Source of the DNA: Bartonella sp. 220B | GTDB taxonomy: Bacteria; Pseudomonadota; Alphaproteobacteria; Rhizobiales; Rhizobiaceae | Length of the DNA: 64,000 nucleotides | Reading direction: 5' to 3' | NCBI RefSeq assembly: GCF_026930205.1 | Contig: NZ_JANHOI010000003.1 | Span: 1 to 64,000 of the forward strand | Part shown: positions 12,751 to 49,740 of the stretch, piece after piece | Position numbering within the stretch: the first letter of the stretch is position 1 | Layout of the letters: every line of letters begins with the position of its first letter | Made by a program: the position numbers and the translations under genes | The notes under the pieces: generated by a model | The model's input: only the letters and a program-made list of their open reading frames with translations | Told to the model about the DNA's origin: nothing | Database searches by the model: none

Positions 12751-14076
12751 CTATCGGATATGTTTAACCATTTTCAAACCTAAATAATTTGCAGTCAATT
12801 TACCAATGAAAGATTGAACACTATAGCTCGCAACAACAGCATTACGCTCTGCTGTCGCAAGTGCAATTTGAGCATTAATTAACTGAGTACGAGAATTTAA
12901 AACATCTAATGTGGTAGCTTGTCCCACACGATTTTCTTGAACACGCCCCTTAAGCGCAATTTCAGCAGCACGAACACTCTCGCGGTAAGCGATGACAGAT
13001 GCGCGAGCACCCTCCAACTGAAACCAAGCAGAAGTAAGTGCTTGTCTTGTACTACTCTGAGCTAAATCAAGGTGAAGGCGAGCCTGCCCAAGTTGTTCCT
13101 TGGATTGGCGAATTTGAGCAGAGGTACGCCCACCTTCAAAAATAGGGACACTGACTGATAACCCTATTGATTTAGAAACGCCATCCTCCCCAGCACCACT
13201 GTAAACACGATTATAAGATGCTGTTGCAGAAAAATCAACTTTAGGAAGTAATGCTCCTTCTTTAGCCTTTACATTATAAAGCCCAGCGTCAACCAAATAT
13301 TTTGCATAAAGAATTGCCGGATGCATAAGTACACTCAGTTGATAAGCTGCATCAAGATTCATCGGCAAATTTTTTGCCACTGGTGGACGCTGTAATTTTT
13401 CAGGTTCAAAACCAATAACTTGTCTATAGGCTGCTTCTGCTGATTTTACTTCAGCACGTGCAAGACTCAGTTCTGAAACAGCTACAGAACGTGCAGCTTG
13501 TGCTTGGGCAAGATCAACACGCCCTCCCTCTCCCACATCAAATTTTGCTTTATTCGAACGAACTTGCTCCTCAAGAGCAGCCAAATTTTCTCTACGAAGA
13601 TCAGCAATACGGCGCGCTTGATACACATTAGCATAAGCTGTTACAGCATCGAGAAACGTATTTTGCTCAGCATTACGAAAATATTCATGCTGAGCCTGTA
13701 ACTTAACCTGAGCTGAAGAAAACATATTCTGCGTGACAAAACCGTCAAACAATCTTTGATTTAATCTTATTCCTATAGATCCAGAAGTGGTATAAGGACC
13801 CACCATAGGCTTACTCCGCCCATAGCTTCCAACCCCTTCAATTTGTGGTAAGAGCCCGGAGCGTGCAATAACCACATCATCACGCGATATACGTACAGCG
13901 GCACGTTCACTTTTTAACTTAGCATTGTGTATATAAGCTTTAGCAAAAGCATCCATCAATGTTTCAGCACAAACAGCCCCTGATAGAAAAACACTCAAAA
14001 CCAGCAACAAACTTGCCTGAATTTTTTTGTTTATTTTGAACACACTACACACAATAACAAATCCCACATTAATCAT
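12751..14076 (-). CDS. tolC: TolC-family outer-membrane channel
   Basis: This is an outer-membrane efflux and secretion duct that docks onto inner-membrane pumps or type I exporters. The 441 residues include a signal sequence (QASLLLVLSVFLSGAVCA) followed by two outer-membrane-efflux repeats of long helices, with conserved pieces such as LNQRLFDGF and VPIFEGGRTSAQIRQSKEQL. Length is close to Brucella BepC. The start is uncertain: the first ATG is used, but a GTG eleven codons downstream (VFKINKK) would still keep the signal peptide. It lies 33 bases downstream of pcm and may be co-transcribed with it. Confidence 0.92.
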   Translation of the reverse strand: MINVGFVIVCSVFKINKKIQASLLLVLSVFLSGAVCAETLMDAFAKAYIHNAKLKSERAAVRISRDDVVIARSGLLPQIEGVGSYGRSKPMVGPYTTSGSIGIRLNQRLFDGFVTQNMFSSAQVKLQAQHEYFRNAEQNTFLDAVTAYANVYQARRIADLRRENLAALEEQVRSNKAKFDVGEGGRVDLAQAQAARSVAVSELSLARAEVKSAEAAYRQVIGFEPEKLQRPPVAKNLPMNLDAAYQLSVLMHPAILYAKYLVDAGLYNVKAKEGALLPKVDFSATASYNRVYSGAGEDGVSKSIGLSVSVPIFEGGRTSAQIRQSKEQLGQARLHLDLAQSSTRQALTSAWFQLEGARASVIAYRESVRAAEIALKGRVQENRVGQATTLDVLNSRTQLINAQIALATAERNAVVASYSVQSFIGKLTANYLGLKMVKHIR

Positions 14077-42967: not shown

Positions 42968-43946
42968 TCGTATAATTCCACCCTTTTGAGATAAAAGATA
43001 AGATACCTTACCTTTTCACTAAGATAAAATGATAAAAAAAATTGTAAACCAGAAAGAAACGCAACAACGCATGCTAAAAGCATTTTTTCGCAAATATTTG
43101 TCATTTTAAACGTGATGTTTTTTCCGTTCCTAAAGGAAATCTAGAATAATCCTAAAATTTTGGTACCATATAATTTTTCATTGGCATTATTTTTCAAGTT
43201 AGCCAAAGTTTACAGATATAAAAATCAACAGTGAAGTCTTTTCAGCTTAGAAAAGATGTAAAACATTGCAAATCAATTCACATATCAGTTTTTGAAGAGA
43301 GAAAATTCAAGAGGAGCAATGTTATGCGTAGATTATTTGAGCTTTAAACAATCAATCTTTTTCTCTCAAGTAAGAAGATTGTTATCATATTTTGTTATTT
43401 CAAATGCTTTTACTATACAGCTATTCAGTAACAAATTAAAAAGTTATCTATGAATTTTCAATGAAATTTTATAATAAATTACCCTTACAATAAATGCATT
43501 GTTAAATGCAAAAGCGGTAGCAATAATAGCAAGTAAAAAAATTTTATTATAAATTATTACTCTTTTCTCACCATTTCTGAGTTCTTTTATTATTTTTTTA
43601 AGCTATTGGTAAGAAGAGACAAATTACATACAAACACTCTTTCAGCCTTTTGTCATCTTTATCCTATCAATCAGATGTATTTTATCACCGATAAGCAACA
43701 ATATTTGTACAACCATCGATTTATTTTTAATATTAAATGAAAAGATTAGGTCTGTATATTGAAAGAGAGGCTGTTGGCTTTACTTTACGCTTTACAGCTT
43801 CAGCAAAATACAAAGATAAGAACACTCTATAAAAATTTATTGTATAATAAAATATAAAAATTGCGATAAAATAGCTTATATCAATTATAACTTATATCAA
43901 TTAAATAATATGTATAATATATTTTAATTATTAACAATTAAACAAT
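42968..43946. other. Long AT-rich gap between divK and the small-protein array
   Basis: Almost 1 kb lacks a convincing gene. The only item of note is a strong ribosome binding site (GAGGAG at 43311-43316) in front of overlapping short frames: ATG at 43324 opens only 7 codons, and ATG at 43319 opens 44 codons to 43453. This could be the start of a decayed gene or a very small protein. The divK promoter should lie near the left side. Confidence 0.45.
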
Positions 43947-44153
43947 TTAGTGCAATTTAAAAACGTCAAAAGTATAAAATACTATAAAAAATAATATAAA
44001 AAACATTACAAAAACTAAAATCGCTATCATTAGCAGATTTTTTTTACTATAACCTTTATATCTCAAGTAAAAATATAAATAAAATAAAATCGTAGTTACG
44101 CTTAGTATCGAAAAAAGCATATTTACAATAAATATGCTAAAATTATCCCACAT
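43947..44153 (-). CDS. Small two-helix membrane protein, family A, copy 2
   Basis: The 68-residue product has two hydrophobic segments separated by a short basic loop containing RYKGYSKK. It is the second copy of the protein at 45032-45280: the start region MW(M)D-F, the SIL-V-T-IL stretch of helix 1 and the KGYSKK loop align. The ATG at 44153 is chosen because GATGGA-N8-ATG matches the upstream sequence of the other copy; a TTG two codons earlier is also in frame. It is the last gene of cassette 2. Function unknown; immunity or a membrane partner of the glycine-zipper proteins is inferred. Confidence 0.7.
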   Translation of the reverse strand: MWDNFSIFIVNMLFSILSVTTILFYLYFYLRYKGYSKKNLLMIAILVFVMFFILFFIVFYTFDVFKLH

Positions 44154-44174
44154 AAACAATGTCCATCATAATAA

Positions 44175-44360
44175 TTAATAATATTTTATTATATAATAAA
44201 GTCCAAAATATATCAAAAAATATACGATAGTTATATTAATTCCTAATTTTATATCCTGCCACCAAGTAGGAAATTTTAATTTATAAAAAAATATACTTAA
44301 AACAATAAAAATATTTGTCGCAAGTAATGCATTTGTAATATTAAATATAATATCAATCAT
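44175..44360 (-). CDS. Small two-helix membrane protein, family B, copy 2
   Basis: The 61-residue product has two hydrophobic helices joined by a short loop (FYKLKFPTWWQDIKLG). It is clearly paralogous to the 59-residue protein at 45318-45497: both begin MID-IF, share NALLATNIFI/V-LSI-FYK-FPT and end YFGL-Y--K. Conservation of the reading frame between copies is strong evidence that these tiny frames are real genes. No family recognised. Confidence 0.75.
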   Translation of the reverse strand: MIDIIFNITNALLATNIFIVLSIFFYKLKFPTWWQDIKLGINITIVYFLIYFGLYYIIKYY

Positions 44361-44380
44361 AATAAATTACATTTAAAATA

Positions 44381-44641
44381 CTAAGTTATATAAAAATTAA
44401 CTAAAGAAAATAAGAAAAAGAACAATATAAAAAATGAACTTATCATTATAAAGGATCTTTTTTTAATTTCTAGGAATGACCTTTTTTTAATATCTCTTTT
44501 TACAGAATCTCTAGATTCATAATAAAATTCAAATAAAGATATAAATATAATTAAATAAGTAATTATATAAATTAAATCAGAAAAAGTATTAAAAATATAC
44601 ATAAAACATAAAATTCCAAAATCAAATAGAATATTAATCAA
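44381..44641 (-). CDS. Small membrane protein, family C, copy 2 (5' end altered)
   Basis: The 86-residue frame begins with TTG at 44641. A conserved ATG at 44602 (MYIFN) aligns with an internal ATG of copy 1 and may be the true start. It has two hydrophobic segments flanking the basic loop FYYESRDSVKRDIKKRS. Against copy 1 (45563-45820) the segment LI-FISLF--YY is conserved. The part corresponding to the first codons of copy 1 is present upstream (MFTNIYKIRF) but ends in a TAG, so this copy's N-terminus differs from copy 1. Function unknown. Confidence 0.65.
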   Translation of the reverse strand: MINILFDFGILCFMYIFNTFSDLIYIITYLIIFISLFEFYYESRDSVKRDIKKRSFLEIKKRSFIMISSFFILFFFLFSLVNFYIT

Positions 44642-44670
44642 TATATTACTAAAATCTAATTTTATAAATA

Positions 44671-44702
44671 TTTGTAAACATATTAATAAATATGTCTACA
44701 AA
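44671..44702 (-). promoter_or_regulatory. Intercistronic hairpin, cassette 2
   Basis: As minus-strand RNA, TTTGTAGACATATT pairs with AATATGTTTACAAA around a 4-base loop. The only departure from a perfect 14-bp stem is a G-U wobble, which holds in the minus-strand transcript but would be an A-C mismatch on the other strand. It lies 39 bases after the glycine-zipper stop, the same place as in cassette 1. No T-run follows, so it is probably a processing, stability or translation-control structure rather than a terminator. Confidence 0.65.
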
Positions 44703-44740
44703 ATTACCATAGTTTTAGAGATGGATAAATATTTTATAAA

Positions 44741-45001
44741 TTAATAATAGCATGCGTCATACCGAGAGCCAAAGCCTATAACTCCTCCTACTCCATAGCC
44801 AATGCCGCTACCGATTGCTGCCCCACCTATAGCCCCAGGCACGATCCCTGCTCCACCTGATGAAAGCCCTTCACCTACATCTCCAATAAATACTCCGGCA
44901 CTGCGTCCTATATTAGCTCCTACTACCCCCGATGAATTTGCTGACGACAAATAATCTCCAACAGTACACCCAGCCTGTGAACCACTTCTTGAAAAATTCA
45001 T
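44741..45001 (-). CDS. Glycine-zipper small protein, copy 2
   Basis: The 86-residue product is very rich in Gly, Ala and Ser. Its second half contains the GxxxG-type run GGAAIGSGIGYGVGGVIGFG. It has exactly two cysteines, C12 and C84, one on each side of the zipper. It has no signal peptide and no double-glycine leader I can recognise. The motif GAAIGxGIGxxVGGxxG is shared with the protein at 45884-46195. The architecture resembles pore-forming glycine-zipper bacteriocins. It lies 31 bases downstream of the family A gene, so the whole array is probably one operon. Confidence 0.75.
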   Translation of the reverse strand: MNFSRSGSQAGCTVGDYLSSANSSGVVGANIGRSAGVFIGDVGEGLSSGGAGIVPGAIGGAAIGSGIGYGVGGVIGFGSRYDACYY

Positions 45002-45031
45002 CGATGAAATATTAGAGAAAGTAGAAAATAT

Positions 45032-45280
45032 TTACTTTATAAAATTTAGTAAAGTATTAAATAAGTTAAATTTATAAAATATAAGAATAAATAGTGTTAT
45101 AACAGACGTTATGAAAAAAACTATAAAACATAACTTTATTATTGATGATAATTTTTTCTTAGTTTCTTTTTTACTGTAACCTTTGGATTCATAGTACAAA
45201 ACAATTAATAATATAACAGTAATTACAATTAAGATTGAACGCAAAAATTCTATAATAAAATCAACAAAATCCATCCACAT
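45032..45280 (-). CDS. Small two-helix membrane protein, family A, copy 1
   Basis: The 82-residue product starts MWMDFVDF and has two hydrophobic helices joined by a basic loop, YYESKGYSKKETKKK. It is paralogous to 43947-44153. The YYES-K loop also resembles the loop of family C, so A and C may share an origin. The start at 45280 follows GGTGGA at the same spacing as copy 2; an ATG three codons upstream is in frame. Function unknown. Confidence 0.72.
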   Translation of the reverse strand: MWMDFVDFIIEFLRSILIVITVILLIVLYYESKGYSKKETKKKLSSIIKLCFIVFFITSVITLFILIFYKFNLFNTLLNFIK

Positions 45281-45317
45281 CAATAACATCCACCATAAAA
45301 ATAAAAAATTATAAACG

Positions 45318-45497
45318 CTATTTTAGCAAATAAAAGAGTCCAAAATACATTACAAAGTAACTAATAATAATCATCAATCCTAATTTGATAGACTGAAACA
45401 ACGTAGGAAAATTTACTTTATAAAAATATATACTTAAAAGTACAAAAATATTTGTTGCAAGCAATGCATTCTTAACAGTAAAAATAACATCAATCAT
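45318..45497 (-). CDS. Small two-helix membrane protein, family B, copy 1
   Basis: This 59-residue gene is easily missed because of its size. It opens MIDVIFTVKNALLATNIFVL, has a short loop (YKVNFPTLFQSIKLG) and ends with a second helix and MYFGLFYLLK. It aligns along its length with the 61-residue protein at 44175-44360. AGGA lies six bases before the ATG. Two helices with short ends predict an integral inner-membrane protein. Function unknown. Confidence 0.75.
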   Translation of the reverse strand: MIDVIFTVKNALLATNIFVLLSIYFYKVNFPTLFQSIKLGLMIIISYFVMYFGLFYLLK

Positions 45498-45562
45498 AAT
45501 ATATCCTATTTAAAAATGATAAATATTTATTACAAAATTATCATACTTTTATAAAAAAGTTA

Positions 45563-45820
45563 TTAAAACAAAATATCAATTACATAAAATTTAACATAAT
45601 AAAATAATATAAAAAATGAAATTATTGTTATTAATGATTTTTGTATAATAAAATTGCTACTACAATCCTTATAACCGTAATATACTTTAAATAAAGATAT
45701 AAATACAATTAAATTAGAGAATGCTATCAACAAAAAATTAATAATATTTAATTTATCCATAACACATAAAATTTCTAAATTTAAATCTATAAAATTTATT
45801 TTATCAACATTTGTAGACAT
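45563..45820 (-). CDS. Small membrane protein, family C, copy 1
   Basis: The 85-residue frame starts at an ATG located in the descending arm of a 14-bp hairpin (45810-45841). An internal ATG at residue 21 (MDKLN) aligns with the ATG of copy 2 and is an alternative start. There are two hydrophobic segments around the loop KVYYGYKDCSSN. It aligns with 44381-44641 over the helices. If the first ATG is used, translation would depend on the hairpin opening. Confidence 0.68.
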   Translation of the reverse strand: MSTNVDKINFIDLNLEILCVMDKLNIINFLLIAFSNLIVFISLFKVYYGYKDCSSNFIIQKSLITIISFFILFYYVKFYVIDILF

Positions 45821-45841
45821 ATTAATAAATATGTCTACAAA
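45810..45841 (-). promoter_or_regulatory. Intercistronic hairpin, cassette 1
   Basis: TTTGTAGACATATT and AATATGTCTACAAA form a perfect 14-bp stem around a 4-base loop, 43 bases after the glycine-zipper stop. The first ATG of the following gene sits in one arm. The near-identical element in cassette 2 at the equivalent place argues that it is functional. Confidence 0.7.
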
Positions 45842-45883
45842 ATTATCATAAATTTAAAGATATACCGCTAAATAGTTGATAAA

Positions 45884-46195
45884 TTACCTTTTTAGACAAA
45901 GATAACCATGATGTATGGCTCCTACAGCTCCCCCTATTAAAGTGCCGTTAAAAGCTCCCCCTACTGCACCTATTGCAGCACCACCTGCAAAAGTCGCTAT
46001 GACAGTCGGTGCAGCAACACCACCTGTTGCAACTGTTGCAGCTCCTCCTGCCACTGCTCCAAGCGCTCCTCCCACTGGCGCTCCAATGCCTGTTCCTATA
46101 GCCGCCCCTAATTGTGCTGTTGATTTCATCTCATCCCAATAACCTGAAGGGCTACATGAAAGGCTTGAATCACGCGATGAGCTTGAACTACCCAT
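45884..46195 (-). CDS. Glycine-zipper small protein, copy 1
   Basis: The 103-residue product has a Ser-rich start (MGSSSSSRDSSLSC), then long Gly/Ala zipper runs such as GAAIGTGIGAPVGGALG (residues 30-46) and GGAAIGAVGGAF (71-82), and a short basic end. Only two cysteines are present, C14 and C100, bracketing the zipper. There is no signal peptide, which separates it from the OmpA/17-kDa-antigen glycine-zipper lipoproteins. The ATG at 46195 is used because GAGA lies just upstream and because ATGs further up fall in the operator. It is the first gene of the array. A bacteriocin-like, membrane-inserting role is inferred. Confidence 0.75.
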   Translation of the reverse strand: MGSSSSSRDSSLSCSPSGYWDEMKSTAQLGAAIGTGIGAPVGGALGAVAGGAATVATGGVAAPTVIATFAGGAAIGAVGGAFNGTLIGGAVGAIHHGYLCLKR

Positions 46196-46220
46196 TATTA
46201 TTCTCATTTCTATTACAAAA

Positions 46221-46237
46221 CGTATCATTATGATACG
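46221..46237. promoter_or_regulatory. Perfect palindromic operator before the array
   Basis: CGTATCATTATGATACG is an 8-1-8 perfect palindrome located at about +3 to +19 from the predicted transcription start and 26 bases before the first gene. This is a classic position for a dimeric repressor. No matching regulator gene is next to it. Confidence 0.7.
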
Positions 46238-46245
46238 GAAAATTC

Positions 46246-46273
46246 ATTATCATGCATTCCAGATCAATGTAAA
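46246..46273 (-). promoter_or_regulatory. Predicted promoter of the small-protein array
   Basis: Reading leftward, TTTACA (46273-46268), a 16-base spacer and GATAAT (46251-46246) make a good sigma-70-type promoter. It points into the array, with the palindrome directly downstream. Confidence 0.6.
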
Positions 46274-46494
46274 ATACATTTTTTTATAAATAACATAATA
46301 ATTCTATAAAAATAATAAATATATTATGTATTAATAATAAAATGCAAAATGTATACTTTAATTAAATAATAATATTATTTATAATACTATAAAATCTGAA
46401 ATATTAATCAGAACTTTCTCTTAACATAATCATAAAAGCAAATGAATCATTCATCAGAAAGTTTAGTATCTTTCTCTTGATTAAGAAAAAAATA

Positions 46495-46596
46495 TCAAAA
46501 AATGTATTTCACACCGACATCTAACTCACTATTGTTTCTATTATCATGCACATACTGGTTATTTCTTTTATTTTTCAGATAATTATCGATCGTACC
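46495..46596 (-). pseudogene. C-terminal remnant of an outer-membrane barrel gene
   Basis: A 34-codon minus-strand frame ends with ELDVGVKYIF and a TGA. The terminal aromatic residue and alternating pattern are typical of a last beta-strand of an outer-membrane barrel. Upstream in this frame there are immediate stops, so only the 3' end remains. Family not assignable. The rest of 46274-47013 has no gene, only short palindromes (AATGCTTAGCATT; ATTCTACAGTAGAAT at 46951-46965). Confidence 0.4.
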
Positions 46597-47013
46597 TTAC
46601 TATATCAACGCGTTGACTTATAAAAATAATCATTGTTGTGCATGATGAATGAGAGTCCCGAATACAGTAAGATCTTTTCATTGCAGCCCCTCTTATAATC
46701 AATCAAAAAAATATTCGCTTGTATATTACATGCAGAATCTGTGTGTGGATAAAAAAACGTTTAAGAAAGGAATAAAATTTCTCTTATAAATCATCTCAAT
46801 GCACAGACACTCACAACATCTCGTCGCGCAAAAATCCTCTATACTATCTGTTAACCCGATGATTACTACATTCTTTAGCACAATGCTTAGCATTATGTTA
46901 GGCATTTTAAGAGCTTATTCTACTACACTTTGCGCATTTTATACTTAACCATTCTACAGTAGAATAAACACACCATAAGCTATAATCTTACTTATGATTT
47001 TTCAAAGGATTGA

Positions 47014-49740
47014 TTAAAAACGATAGCGTACCCCACCAGAAAAACGAATTCCAGAAAAACCAGCCTTGGTAAGCTTATACTGGTAGATTAAATCACCGTG
47101 AAGCGCAATCTTTGAAGACAGTTTTGCATGAATACCAAATCCCGTTTCTAAAGAAGAACCAAAAGAACCCAACGGAAAAGTATCTTTAAAACGCACCAAT
47201 TGTTTGCCTCCAAAACTATGCGTAAAATGAAGTTTTCCATGAAAAGAGGTAATGCGATCCTCTTGAGAAGTGGCAAGGGTTTTGGTTAAATGCCCACCAA
47301 CGCGTATCACCCATTGATCAGGTTTTCCCATTTCAATATCAAAGTAATCAATATCACGAGCATTATCAAATCGGAGATACTGATAAATAACTTGAGCCTG
47401 CGGATCAAAAATAAGCCCCCTATCCCCTATCATAAATGCTTTACCAGCAGACAAAGAAACATTCAGAGGCGTCCCTTTTAATGACGCCGTCTTACCTCTT
47501 GCAACAGTAAAGACATCACCTTTAAACAGCCCATAGGATAAAAGTCCATTCGCATAAAAACCCGTATCATATTCTATACGACCATATGCTGTCATTGACC
47601 ATTTATGAAATACACTTTTTTGACTTTGCTCAACATCCCGAGGGCGCAAAGAAAGCTTTCCATAAGTTCCCACGATCCCTAAAAACGTTTTACTATATAC
47701 ACTTTCAATCGTCTTCAACGAAATGCCAGCCTCTATAGCATTATAATTAAGATTGCCTCCATAACCATATTCAAGTGCGGAAAGATCTGAAACATAACGG
47801 TAACTTCCACCATACCCTTGAACAAATAAAGCAAAATCTTTATTCGTTTCTAAAAATTTACCAGAAACAGATCGCATGATCTCCAACCGCTTATTTTGGT
47901 TACTGATATCTATCAGCCCAGTATGGAATAAGGCATTCTGCAAGAGAAGATAAGTTGGAATTTGTGGAACAACCTCTCTTATTTTTGTTTCAACAGGCTC
48001 CTCTGGAACAGGTTGGATATATTTACTTTCGAGACGAAAATCCCAAAAATTGTCATGACCTTCCACTAATCTTTGATCAGTACGTGCATTGCCAAGAGAA
48101 GAACTTGGACCATAAGCATGGAGATAGTATTGATAAGGCAAACCTCCCCATGTGATATAAGGGCTACTCAGCTGGAAAGAATCTTCTACGGCTTTTCCAG
48201 AAACTTGAATGAGCGAAATACTGTGCGTATTTCCATTGCCTGCCTCATCCCCTTTATTTCCTGCGATAAACTGCACATGAATTGTCGTTTTTCCAGAAAC
48301 ATCACCATAAATCAAAAGCCTATCAGTCTTCTGATCATTGAGTGAACCATCATCATTGAGAAACGTATTAAGATAGAGATGTGCATTCCCCTGTGCACTG
48401 TAAGCTTCTTCCTTTCCATTACCAATATGAAGTGCCTGATACTCTTCGTCCGTTGGAGTTTCGAAAGCGATAATACTATCAGAAAGTTTTACAAACGAAA
48501 GAGAGGAAATGACACGGTTCGAGTCCTGCAAATTTATTGCTTTTCTCTTCGTTAAAAACCATTTTGAATCTCTTGTCAAATAAAGCTCGGCAGTAGAATC
48601 ATCAACAACGCGCGCACCCCCTATCAGTGAAGAAGATTCAATCAACACCGCCATAGAAGATCCGTTTTCAGCTGTTAAAAATAAATCTCCAGAAATCTTT
48701 GTACCTTCTGTGACGCCAATATAACCACTACTCTTATGACTATGAATAGCCGTACCATCAGGAACCTCAAAAGTTGTCTTTTTAAAAAAGACAATTCCTT
48801 GTTCGTAGCCATTAGCTCCTTTGTCCATATCAAAATGCACACCATGCTTGTTACCTGTCAACGTAATCTTTGAATCCTCAATATTAACTCGAGAAACTAA
48901 AATACGCCCGTCCTCTCCAGCATTTGATCGCGCATTAGAATCTAATCCAATCCACAAACCACGAACATCGCTAGCAACAACATTGCTATTCTTTAGAAAA
49001 AGAGAACCATTCTGATTTACACTTAAAACTGCATGAGCAATGCTATCTTCTTCATTTATTTTTTTACCTTTTGAAGTAATGGTAACATTATCTAAAGCTA
49101 CACGTCCCCTTATTCCTACATAAGCCGCAGCGACATCCGTCACATCAATCGCTCCCCCTGTCATCTTAATACTTGCATCAACACCACTGAAAAGAGCAGC
49201 CTTCTGCCTGATGTTTTGACCTTCGACTTTAATTTTTGTATCTGTTAAAATAATAGATGCTCCCTGTTTGTCGGCATGAGCACCTAGTTGAGTAACCTCT
49301 ACCAATCCACGATTGATCTCAATCGTTCCACTCTCAGCCTTGAGTCCTATAGAAAAACTCTTTAAAGTTGAATCGCTTAAAACAACCTTTCCACTTTGTG
49401 AGGCAACTACACCATAGGTATCTTCTGTATTATTGGCAGTTTCAACCTTCACACGCGTTGCGCGGATAATTGTATTTTTTTGCTGCGCGACTATAGCAGC
49501 TGACGATAAAAAAGAATTATCATCCTTTTTTTCAGAGGAGATCATAAACTGGTATGATTGATCAGCAATTATATGCTCTGTAGCATCACTACATCTATAA
49601 GGTAATTTGCTCTCACTGCACGAAAGTGAGACGGATGAAAGAGAACGTGCCTCAACATTTTCTATATTTGATAAAAAAGAAAAAACAGCCCCTATAAAGA
49701 CACATGAATATAAACGATTTTTAGATATTTTGATCACCAT
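47014..49740 (-). CDS. Autotransporter (type V secretion), Bartonella Iba/BafA-like
   Basis: The 908-residue protein has a signal sequence (SCVFIGAVFSFLSNIENVEA) and a beta-helix passenger of about 550 residues with repeated strand-turn units. A Pro/Glu linker (PVPEEPVETKIREVVPQ) follows, and a C-terminal barrel of about 280 residues ends in GVRYRF. The C-terminal Phe and this layout are diagnostic of classical autotransporters. Bartonella species carry families of these (Iba, BafA), with adhesion or angiogenic roles. Which member this is, and whether the passenger is released, cannot be told here. It forms a single-gene unit beside the small-protein array. Confidence 0.88.
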   Translation of the reverse strand: MVIKISKNRLYSCVFIGAVFSFLSNIENVEARSLSSVSLSCSESKLPYRCSDATEHIIADQSYQFMISSEKKDDNSFLSSAAIVAQQKNTIIRATRVKVETANNTEDTYGVVASQSGKVVLSDSTLKSFSIGLKAESGTIEINRGLVEVTQLGAHADKQGASIILTDTKIKVEGQNIRQKAALFSGVDASIKMTGGAIDVTDVAAAYVGIRGRVALDNVTITSKGKKINEEDSIAHAVLSVNQNGSLFLKNSNVVASDVRGLWIGLDSNARSNAGEDGRILVSRVNIEDSKITLTGNKHGVHFDMDKGANGYEQGIVFFKKTTFEVPDGTAIHSHKSSGYIGVTEGTKISGDLFLTAENGSSMAVLIESSSLIGGARVVDDSTAELYLTRDSKWFLTKRKAINLQDSNRVISSLSFVKLSDSIIAFETPTDEEYQALHIGNGKEEAYSAQGNAHLYLNTFLNDDGSLNDQKTDRLLIYGDVSGKTTIHVQFIAGNKGDEAGNGNTHSISLIQVSGKAVEDSFQLSSPYITWGGLPYQYYLHAYGPSSSLGNARTDQRLVEGHDNFWDFRLESKYIQPVPEEPVETKIREVVPQIPTYLLLQNALFHTGLIDISNQNKRLEIMRSVSGKFLETNKDFALFVQGYGGSYRYVSDLSALEYGYGGNLNYNAIEAGISLKTIESVYSKTFLGIVGTYGKLSLRPRDVEQSQKSVFHKWSMTAYGRIEYDTGFYANGLLSYGLFKGDVFTVARGKTASLKGTPLNVSLSAGKAFMIGDRGLIFDPQAQVIYQYLRFDNARDIDYFDIEMGKPDQWVIRVGGHLTKTLATSQEDRITSFHGKLHFTHSFGGKQLVRFKDTFPLGSFGSSLETGFGIHAKLSSKIALHGDLIYQYKLTKAGFSGIRFSGGVRYRF

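What the first reader, a model, noticed from the sequence alone, without database searches (positions are those of the whole stretch)
43947..46195. Tandem duplication of a four-gene small-protein cassette: glycine-zipper protein plus three tiny membrane proteins
On the minus strand the order is glycine-zipper (45884-46195), C (45563-45820), B (45318-45497), A (45032-45280), then again glycine-zipper (44741-45001), C (44381-44641), B (44175-44360), A (43947-44153). Each member of copy 1 aligns with its partner in copy 2, and reading frames are conserved despite DNA divergence, so selection has kept these genes. The set fits a two-component glycine-zipper bacteriocin with immunity or partner membrane proteins, as in Caulobacter Cdz (CdzC, CdzD, CdzI), but I know of no such description for this locus. 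No exporter gene is adjacent; the chromosomal TolC at 12.8-14.1 kb could serve a type I exporter elsewhere.
Basis: partly seen in the sequence, partly recalled or inferred. Interest (0 to 1): 0.9.

Follow-up and report, generated by a model that had tools for sequence, protein, structure and literature searches.

The report
Orphan glycine-zipper bacteriocin and immunity cassettes
Two small gene sets in a Bartonella genome each look like a tiny membrane-active antibacterial peptide plus its own protective membrane proteins, and they appear to be detached pieces of a larger weapon-like system whose export genes resemble those of haemolysin toxins.

Summary
The eight ORFs are real (8 ORFs of at least 59 aa against a resampled mean of 0.48, maximum 4). 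A, B and C pair between copies, but the two glycine-zipper (Gz) proteins do not align. This does not look like one tandemly duplicated cassette: the two Gz belong to different types, each followed by C-B-A in other Bartonella.

In relatives such cassettes sit divergently beside an HlyB-like ABC transporter without its N-terminal domain, an HlyD adaptor and an HlyC-type acyltransferase. Gz type and downstream membrane-protein family go together (37 pairs, mutual information 2.06 bits, shuffled maximum 1.12).

The window has lost that exporter and keeps a stop-bearing fragment at 46442-46617. The genome holds the exporter elsewhere, its ABC gene split in this assembly, and a further dispersed cassette with a near-identical promoter dyad.

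Best reading: orphan toxin-immunity cassettes of a Bartonella type I-secreted glycine-zipper bacteriocin family. It works like Cdz or class II microcins but is not a tested member of either. Export, acylation, killing and protection are untested; structure prediction never ran.

The parts
45884..46195 (-). Gz1: 103-aa glycine-zipper protein, type V, N-terminus MGSSSSSRDS, one Cys after the Ser-rich stretch and one near the C-terminus
   Evidence: relatives L107 (50% id), L100, L105
45563..45820 (-). C1: small membrane protein of the A/C/G group; start codon uncertain
45318..45497 (-). B1: 59-aa two-TM protein of the B/D/E/F/H group, best immunity candidate; Leu where most aligned relatives have Trp
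45032..45280 (-). A1: small membrane protein of the A/C/G group (frame open from 45289)
44741..45001 (-). Gz2: 86-aa glycine-zipper protein, type IV, without the N-terminal part of its relatives and without a promoter dyad of its own
44381..44641 (-). C2: small membrane protein (TTG start)
44175..44360 (-). B2: 61-aa two-TM protein with the Trp
43947..44153 (-). A2: small membrane protein
46246..46273 (-). promoter-like TTTACA-16-GATAAT before Gz1 (one of 37 consensus matches in the region, 26.6 expected; supported by a TTGACA-like box at the same distance in relatives)
46221..46237 (-). 17-bp dyad CGTATCATAATGATACG plus T-run, about 40 bp before Gz1; operator or 5' mRNA hairpin
45810..45841 (-). 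14-bp-arm inverted repeat between the Gz1 stop and the C1 start
44678..44695 (-). shorter counterpart of that inverted repeat in copy 2 (7-bp arms)
46442..46617 (+). fragment of the exporter ABC gene (about residues 1-60, with stops), divergent from Gz1
12751..14076 (-). TolC-family outer membrane protein, possible outer-membrane part of the exporter (inference)

Best explanation
The window carries two orphan cassettes of an antibacterial system found in part of the genus Bartonella. In its complete form (relatives) one divergent promoter region drives, on one side, a type I exporter (HlyB-like ABC lacking the N-terminal domain, HlyD adaptor, HlyC-type acyltransferase) and, on the other, one or more small glycine-zipper proteins, each followed by small membrane proteins of a matching type. 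Proposed mechanism: the Gz protein, with a Ser-rich N-terminus and a Cys pair that may close the zipper into a loop, is exported without leader cleavage, possibly after acylation by HlyC, and inserts into the inner membrane of related cells; the cognate B/D/E/F/H-group protein, with A/C/G-group helpers in some types, blocks this in the producer. Shown here: gene order, family relations, type-to-family pairing, shared promoter module, loss of the exporter at this site, a split ABC gene at the second site. Inferred: export, acylation, toxicity, immunity, disulphide. In this strain the cassettes may act mainly as immunity or be in early decay.
For: Homologous cassettes: B in 13 of 61 Bartonella genomes sampled; 12 of these 13 also have HlyC, which occurs in 24 of 61 (Fisher 1.6e-5, relatedness not corrected). 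Linkage: in each of 21 HlyC loci fetched (19 of the 24 genomes) a Gz ORF or fragment lies divergently within 1.3 kb of the ABC gene (18 by script; L098, L104 and L106 at 253-257 bp from coordinates). Pairing of Gz type with the first downstream family: 37 pairs, 2.06 bits, shuffled mean 0.67, maximum 1.12 in 10,000. Profile comparison: A-C-G pairs at 97%, B/D/E/F/H pairs at 58-96%. Promoter module: 28 sites, stem pairs 4 and 5 formed in 28 of 28, T-rich tail, TTGACA-like box 29-33 nt before the dyad in 24 of 28. Site: L100 and L104 have autotransporter, exporter, Gz, C-B-A, response regulator in order at the window's place. Own genome: locus L007 with exporter, and an orphan cassette on C1 with dyad, Gz-like ORF and two B/F-related genes, found by following an ABC remnant. 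L099 has no open Gz ORF but open C, B and A. No RTX repeats in 12 of 12 HlyC genomes tested (of 24), while the control rang in 2 of 14.
Against: No experiment. Gz genes without an intact B exist: L105 and L107 have an open type-V Gz but B with stops. An ABC ORF of at least 555 aa is present in only 9 of the 21 exporter loci, and G000's only close copy is split. In G019 (L113) the window's cassette is degraded and HlyC is absent. The candidate acylation Lys (K-[YFLWV]-x-x-C near the C-terminus) is in 14 of 29 Gz ORFs listed and not in the two window Gz. Profile comparison does not split the two membrane-protein groups cleanly: C-E scores 80%. dN/dS is indecisive, and the B tree does not separate the copies. 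Gz types and families were defined by me on the loci then counted, and window Gz1 was set to type V by hand in the script. The HlyB model is matched below its NCBIfam cut-off, and no NCBIfam model matched HlyC at 1e-5. The structure server was busy each time.
Confidence: 0.68

Rival explanations
1. The cassettes are relics: with the exporter gone from this site and split at the other, they are decaying leftovers without present function in this strain. (Compatible with the best explanation for the family, so the odds overlap.)
For: Exporter deletion at the site, split ABC, Gz2 without N-terminal part and promoter dyad, degraded orthologue in G019.
Against: All eight frames are open here, and the Gz1 promoter module and dyad are intact. 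A split ABC in a draft assembly may be a sequence error. Other ABC genes of 26-29% identity with open frames are present.
Confidence: 0.3
2. The Gz proteins are surface amyloid or adhesion proteins exported by the type I system, and the small membrane proteins are chaperones or anchors rather than immunity proteins.
For: Glycine zippers occur in amyloids, and CdzC itself aggregates on the cell surface (PMC5380434, passages read); an autotransporter gene adjoins the locus.
Against: Type-specific pairing with diverse small proteins, and C-B-A blocks kept without an open Gz of their own (L099, L106), fit immunity better than a chaperone.
Confidence: 0.13
3. The system acts on host cells as an acylated membrane-active toxin, in the manner of RTX haemolysins.
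For: HlyC-type gene and HlyB/HlyD-like exporter.
Against: Paired, type-specific small membrane proteins are not needed against a host target; no RTX repeats in the 12 HlyC genomes tested.
Confidence: 0.08

Closest known systems
Cdz system of Caulobacter crescentus (PMC5380434; passages, including part of the abstract, and section 13 read)
   Same: Small glycine-zipper proteins (84-86 aa in Cdz), two divergent operons with type I exporter genes, small multi-TM immunity protein, TolC encoded elsewhere
   Different: Cdz-like proteins were defined with a leader ending in G[G/A/S]; many Bartonella Gz start MGSSSSSxDS and the exporter has no N-terminal peptidase-sized region. The Cdz paper judges CdzC/D probably unmodified; here an acyltransferase gene ends the exporter operon. 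Arrays of up to four Gz types (L104) with matching partner families. 'Bartonella' occurs 0 times in that text
Class II microcins, including siderophore (IIb) microcins (PMC13101503, passages read)
   Same: Small type I-secreted peptides, mostly unannotated immunity genes, one described cluster with a gene similar to toxin-activating lysine-acyltransferase and a microcin with many C-terminal serines
   Different: Exporters there are peptidase-containing (PCAT); here the ABC aligns to HlyB from residue 139 onward. The Ser-rich part is N-terminal, not C-terminal
RTX toxin operons (HlyC-HlyB-HlyD; ApxC structure 4whn)
   Same: HlyC family E 3e-32, ApxC E 9e-19 with the His of SPLHRRW and the Asp of WFID kept (their catalytic role is recalled), HlyB best PDB match, HlyD model above cut-off
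   Different: ABC lacks the first about 120-138 residues of HlyB; no RTX repeats in the 12 HlyC genomes tested; neighbouring candidate cargo is about 80-280 aa Gz proteins
Polymorphic toxin-immunity arrays in general (recalled)
   Same: Variable toxins with matching immunity genes, orphan immunity genes, cassettes spread by recombination
   Different: Membrane-active zipper peptides rather than enzyme domains (inference)

Membership tests
Cdz-like contact-dependent system | Gz protein of 60-151 residues | tested here: met
   Gz1 103 aa, Gz2 86 aa; some type I relatives reach 281 aa
Cdz-like contact-dependent system | glycine-zipper motif | tested here: met
   GxxxG excess P 0.0044 and 0.0048 for the window proteins; of 10 proteins tested 2 were above 0.05
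Cdz-like contact-dependent system | leader peptide ending in G[G/A/S] | tested here: inconclusive
   N-termini read by eye show no conserved double-glycine leader; the exporter ABC is 555 aa and aligns to HlyB only from residue 139; no leader predictor was run
Cdz-like contact-dependent system | type I exporter genes in the cluster | tested here: not met
   absent at the window locus except a fragment; present in relatives
Cdz-like contact-dependent system | small TM immunity protein that protects | not testable with these tools
   small TM proteins present and type-paired; protection needs an assay
Cdz-like contact-dependent system | contact-dependent killing, surface aggregates | not testable with these tools
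   experiment needed
RTX toxin system | HlyC-family acyltransferase | tested here: met
   PF02794 E 3e-32 and ApxC match, in G000 on contig C33; no NCBIfam model at 1e-5
RTX toxin system | RTX Ca-binding repeats in a cargo | tested here: not met
   PF00353 in 0 of 12 HlyC genomes tested (of 24), control rings in 2 of 14; the PF02382 search rang in no control and says nothing
Class II microcin | exporter with N-terminal peptidase domain (PCAT) | tested here: not met
   ABC lacks the N-terminal region
Known defence or phage family | profile match | tested here: not met
   no Pfam or NCBIfam match over cut-off, no PADLOC match at 0.01, PHROG matches weak, best E 0.0018

The most novel reading that the evidence does not exclude
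Bartonella species have turned an RTX-haemolysin export and activation machine (HlyC, HlyD and an HlyB shorn of its N-terminal domain) into the delivery system of a polymorphic arsenal of tiny, lipid-acylated glycine-zipper bacteriocins. Cassettes of toxin plus cognate immunity are exchanged and dispersed through a constant divergent promoter region that drags a piece of the ABC gene along, giving kin discrimination between strains that share a host or vector.
Probability: 0.3. Interest if true: 0.82.

Novelty: new variant of a known kind. Interest (0 to 1): 0.62.

Why it matters
It would add a type I-secreted, possibly acylated peptide weapon to a genus better known for type IV and V secretion. 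It would also give HlyC-type acyltransferases a candidate substrate that is not an RTX protein. The several types with matching partner families make toxin-immunity specificity testable with pairs of short genes, and the dispersed cassettes show how such arsenals may be built and lost.

Tried and rejected
Simple recent tandem duplication: set aside, since Gz1 and Gz2 do not align and A1/A2 fall with different rows; the B tree does not decide. Known domain families: none over a cut-off. Plasmid or phage origin: B has no tblastn match at 1e-3 in 72,556 plasmid and 50,697 phage records. Occurrence outside the genus: HlyC matches at 1e-15 in 3 of 297 genomes of the order and 7 of 385 of the class, G000 counted in both. 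Of nine such loci fetched, five have an ABC gene near HlyC, of 707-747 aa; seven Gly-rich ORFs were flagged (two overlapping an ABC gene), none with the Bartonella N-terminal signature by eye. The terminator reading of the inter-gene hairpin was set aside for lack of a T-run. dN/dS was only roughly usable; YN00 ran for 6 of 16 pairs. The exact 17-bp dyad also occurs once in G023 (C4:191308), which I did not examine. Structure prediction of alignments A3 and A4 was asked for 12 times; the machine was busy each time, so no fold search was made. A second further Gz-like ORF of this genome (L135:4679-4990) has the start MGSSSRSHDY but no dyad and large neighbouring membrane ORFs; left unassigned.
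Full report
What is there. All eight ORFs exist on the minus strand at the stated places. Eight ORFs of at least 59 aa in 43900-46250 compare with a mean of 0.48 and a maximum of 4 in 2000 resamplings. The Gz genes are 48% G+C, the small membrane-protein genes 14-23%. None of the eight proteins reaches a curated cut-off in Pfam or NCBIfam and PADLOC gives nothing at 0.01; PHROGs gives weak matches, best E 0.0018. The genus rests on the 'same genus' kinship of 60 sampled genomes and on the titles of four named relatives, all Bartonella.

The two copies. B, A and C align between copies (64%, 42%, 38% identity), but the Gz proteins do not. Both Gz proteins have a GxxxG excess over shuffles. In an alignment of 16 Gz proteins, Cys14 and Cys100 of Gz1 are nearly invariant. 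Gz1 belongs with proteins I call type V, Gz2 with type IV; both types are followed by C-B-A in other Bartonella genomes. The A tree separates A1 (with L100 and L099) from A2 (92/93), the C tree does so weakly (78/86), and the B tree leaves both window copies in one unresolved group. Gz2 lacks the promoter dyad and the N-terminal part of its relatives; an in-frame relic of that part precedes its ATG (read by eye). So the window most likely holds two different cassettes in series, the second probably served by the first one's promoter (inference). NG86 dN/dS is below 1 in all 16 pairs computed (0.21-0.90), but YN00, where it ran (6 of 16), gave 0.21-1.58 with four values above 1.

The rest of the system. 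A search of the window's own genome found a related promoter region on contig C33. There a 145-aa Gz gene with its own small membrane protein faces an ABC transporter, an HlyD adaptor and an HlyC-family acyltransferase. In the genus sample HlyC is in 24 of 61 genomes, B in 13 of 61 and relatives of the C33 Gz in 15 of 61; 12 of the 13 and 13 of the 15 share a genome with HlyC. I fetched 21 HlyC loci from 19 of the 24 genomes; the HlyC contigs of G010 and of four genomes with fragmentary or stop-bearing HlyC (G022, G033, G047, G057) were not fetched. In each of the 21 a Gz ORF or fragment lies divergently within 1.3 kb of the ABC gene: 18 by script, and L098, L104 and L106 from the coordinates, where ABC remnants misled the script.

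The exporter. An intact ABC is 555 aa. Its best solved relative is HlyB (E 1.2e-92), aligned from HlyB residue 139 onward; the NCBIfam HlyB model is matched from position 120 of 694, below its cut-off. The N-terminal domain is therefore missing. The acyltransferase matches ApxC and keeps the His and Asp that I recall as catalytic. RTX repeats were found in 0 of 12 HlyC-bearing genomes tested, while the control rang in 2 of 14 named genomes. The outer-membrane part could be the TolC-family protein at 12751-14076.

Toxin type and partner type. Sorting 39 Gz-like ORFs into seven types and the small membrane proteins into eight families gave 37 Gz-to-first-downstream-family pairs: I to D 12, I to G 2, II to F 4, III to E 2, IV to C 7, IVb to G 3, V to C 4, V to A 1, VI to H 2. 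Mutual information is 2.06 bits against a shuffled mean of 0.67 and maximum of 1.12 in 10,000. Loci share ancestry, the classes are mine and window Gz1 was typed by hand, so the number is descriptive. Profile comparison joins A, C and G at 97% and B, D, E, F and H at 58-96%, but C-E also scores 80%, so the two groups are not cleanly apart. Aligned B, D, F and H members share a nearly invariant Trp and an invariant Lys in the loop between the helices. C-B-A blocks without an open Gz of their own occur (L099, L106), but so do open type-V Gz genes whose B has stops (L105, L107).

Regulatory DNA. Of 31 Gz starts inspected, two had Ns and window copy 2 had no dyad (best 10 of 17); the other 28 have a dyad of the form GTATCA-N3-TGATAC, 12 to 17 of 17 positions matching, 38-62 bp upstream and followed by a T-rich stretch. 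A TTGACA-like box lies 29-33 nt before it in 24 of 28. The exact 17-mer occurs at two places in the window's genome, both before Gz genes, once in G023 at a place not examined, and in none of the other 59 genomes. Its place near the expected transcription start fits an operator or a 5' hairpin. A second inverted repeat lies between Gz and the first membrane gene in 3 of 4 type V loci, in some type IV loci, and in the one IVb and one III locus looked at. In L110 it is GATATATT/AATATATC where the window has GACATATT/AATATGTC, a change on both sides.

How the window came to be. L100 and L104 show the fuller order at this site: autotransporter, exporter, Gz, C-B-A, response regulator and onward. 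The window lacks the exporter between about 46617 and 47014 and keeps ABC residues 1-60 with stops at 46442-46617. L113 (genome G019) shares the deletion, has only the copy-1 cassette, and its Gz and B are degraded; G019 has no HlyC. ABC fragments upstream of Gz genes (L098, L103, L104, L105, L106) suggest that cassettes move or multiply together with the divergent promoter region. Testing this, I followed two weak ABC remnants of the window's genome. One, on C1, lies beside a Gz-like ORF with two B/F-related genes and a dyad at -44 that differs from the consensus at one of 16 specified bases. The other, on C33, lies beside a Gz-like ORF without dyad or small partners.

State of the exporter. 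The only close ABC copy of this genome is split into two overlapping frames with a TAG; other ABC genes with open frames over most of the query share only 26-29% identity. Only 9 of the 21 loci have an ABC ORF of at least 555 aa. Draft assemblies can break genes falsely, so this is not proof of loss.

Function. The arrangement (secreted-type zipper peptide, matching membrane partner, export operon) is what a bacteriocin with immunity predicts, and I put it at 0.68. Acylation by HlyC is an inference from gene linkage and from the lack of RTX cargo; the C-terminal K-x-x-x-C motif that might be its target is in 14 of 29 listed Gz ORFs but not in the two window proteins.

Print. Eight paper searches in an open-licence PMC library showed no description of this locus in what I saw. 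The broadest, Bartonella with bacteriocin, found 108 papers, of which 15 were listed; one search found 60 and listed 20. I read passages of PMC8386478, PMC13101503, PMC3610622, PMC2697382 and PMC9336547, and passages and section 13 of PMC5380434; the rest I saw only as listings. Subscription papers are mostly not covered.

Noticed in passing
L136 (G000 contig C1:326000-336000), 4047-4853 minus strand: A further orphan cassette of the same genome: 87-aa Gz-like ORF, two B/F-related membrane ORFs, promoter dyad at -44, ABC remnant upstream.
   Followed up: partly
L135 (G000 contig C33:168500-178857), 4679-4990 minus strand: 103-aa Gz-like ORF starting MGSSSRSHDY beside an ABC remnant, followed by 312-, 254-, 295- and 304-aa membrane-like ORFs instead of small ones; no dyad.
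   Followed up: partly
type I Gz genes in L007, L097, L111, L114, L115, L116: Type I Gz proteins hold one to several Cys-bounded zipper units ending in DKYNQC or similar, so length varies (145 to 281 aa for the full-length ones in these loci).
   Followed up: no
window 47014-49740: Autotransporter gene adjoins the former exporter site here and in L100 and L104; an adhesion role beside a short-range weapon is conceivable.
   Followed up: no
L007 4704-6614 minus strand: 636-aa ORF with a weak TPS secretion-domain match (below cut-off) close to the C33 exporter locus.
   Followed up: no
window 46613-46697 and G000:C1:352333-352418: About 85 bp of 77% identity between the start of the former exporter region and another chromosomal place.
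   Followed up: no
G023:C4:191308-191324: The 17-bp dyad pattern occurs here too, on a contig other than those of the two G023 cassette loci fetched.
   Followed up: no
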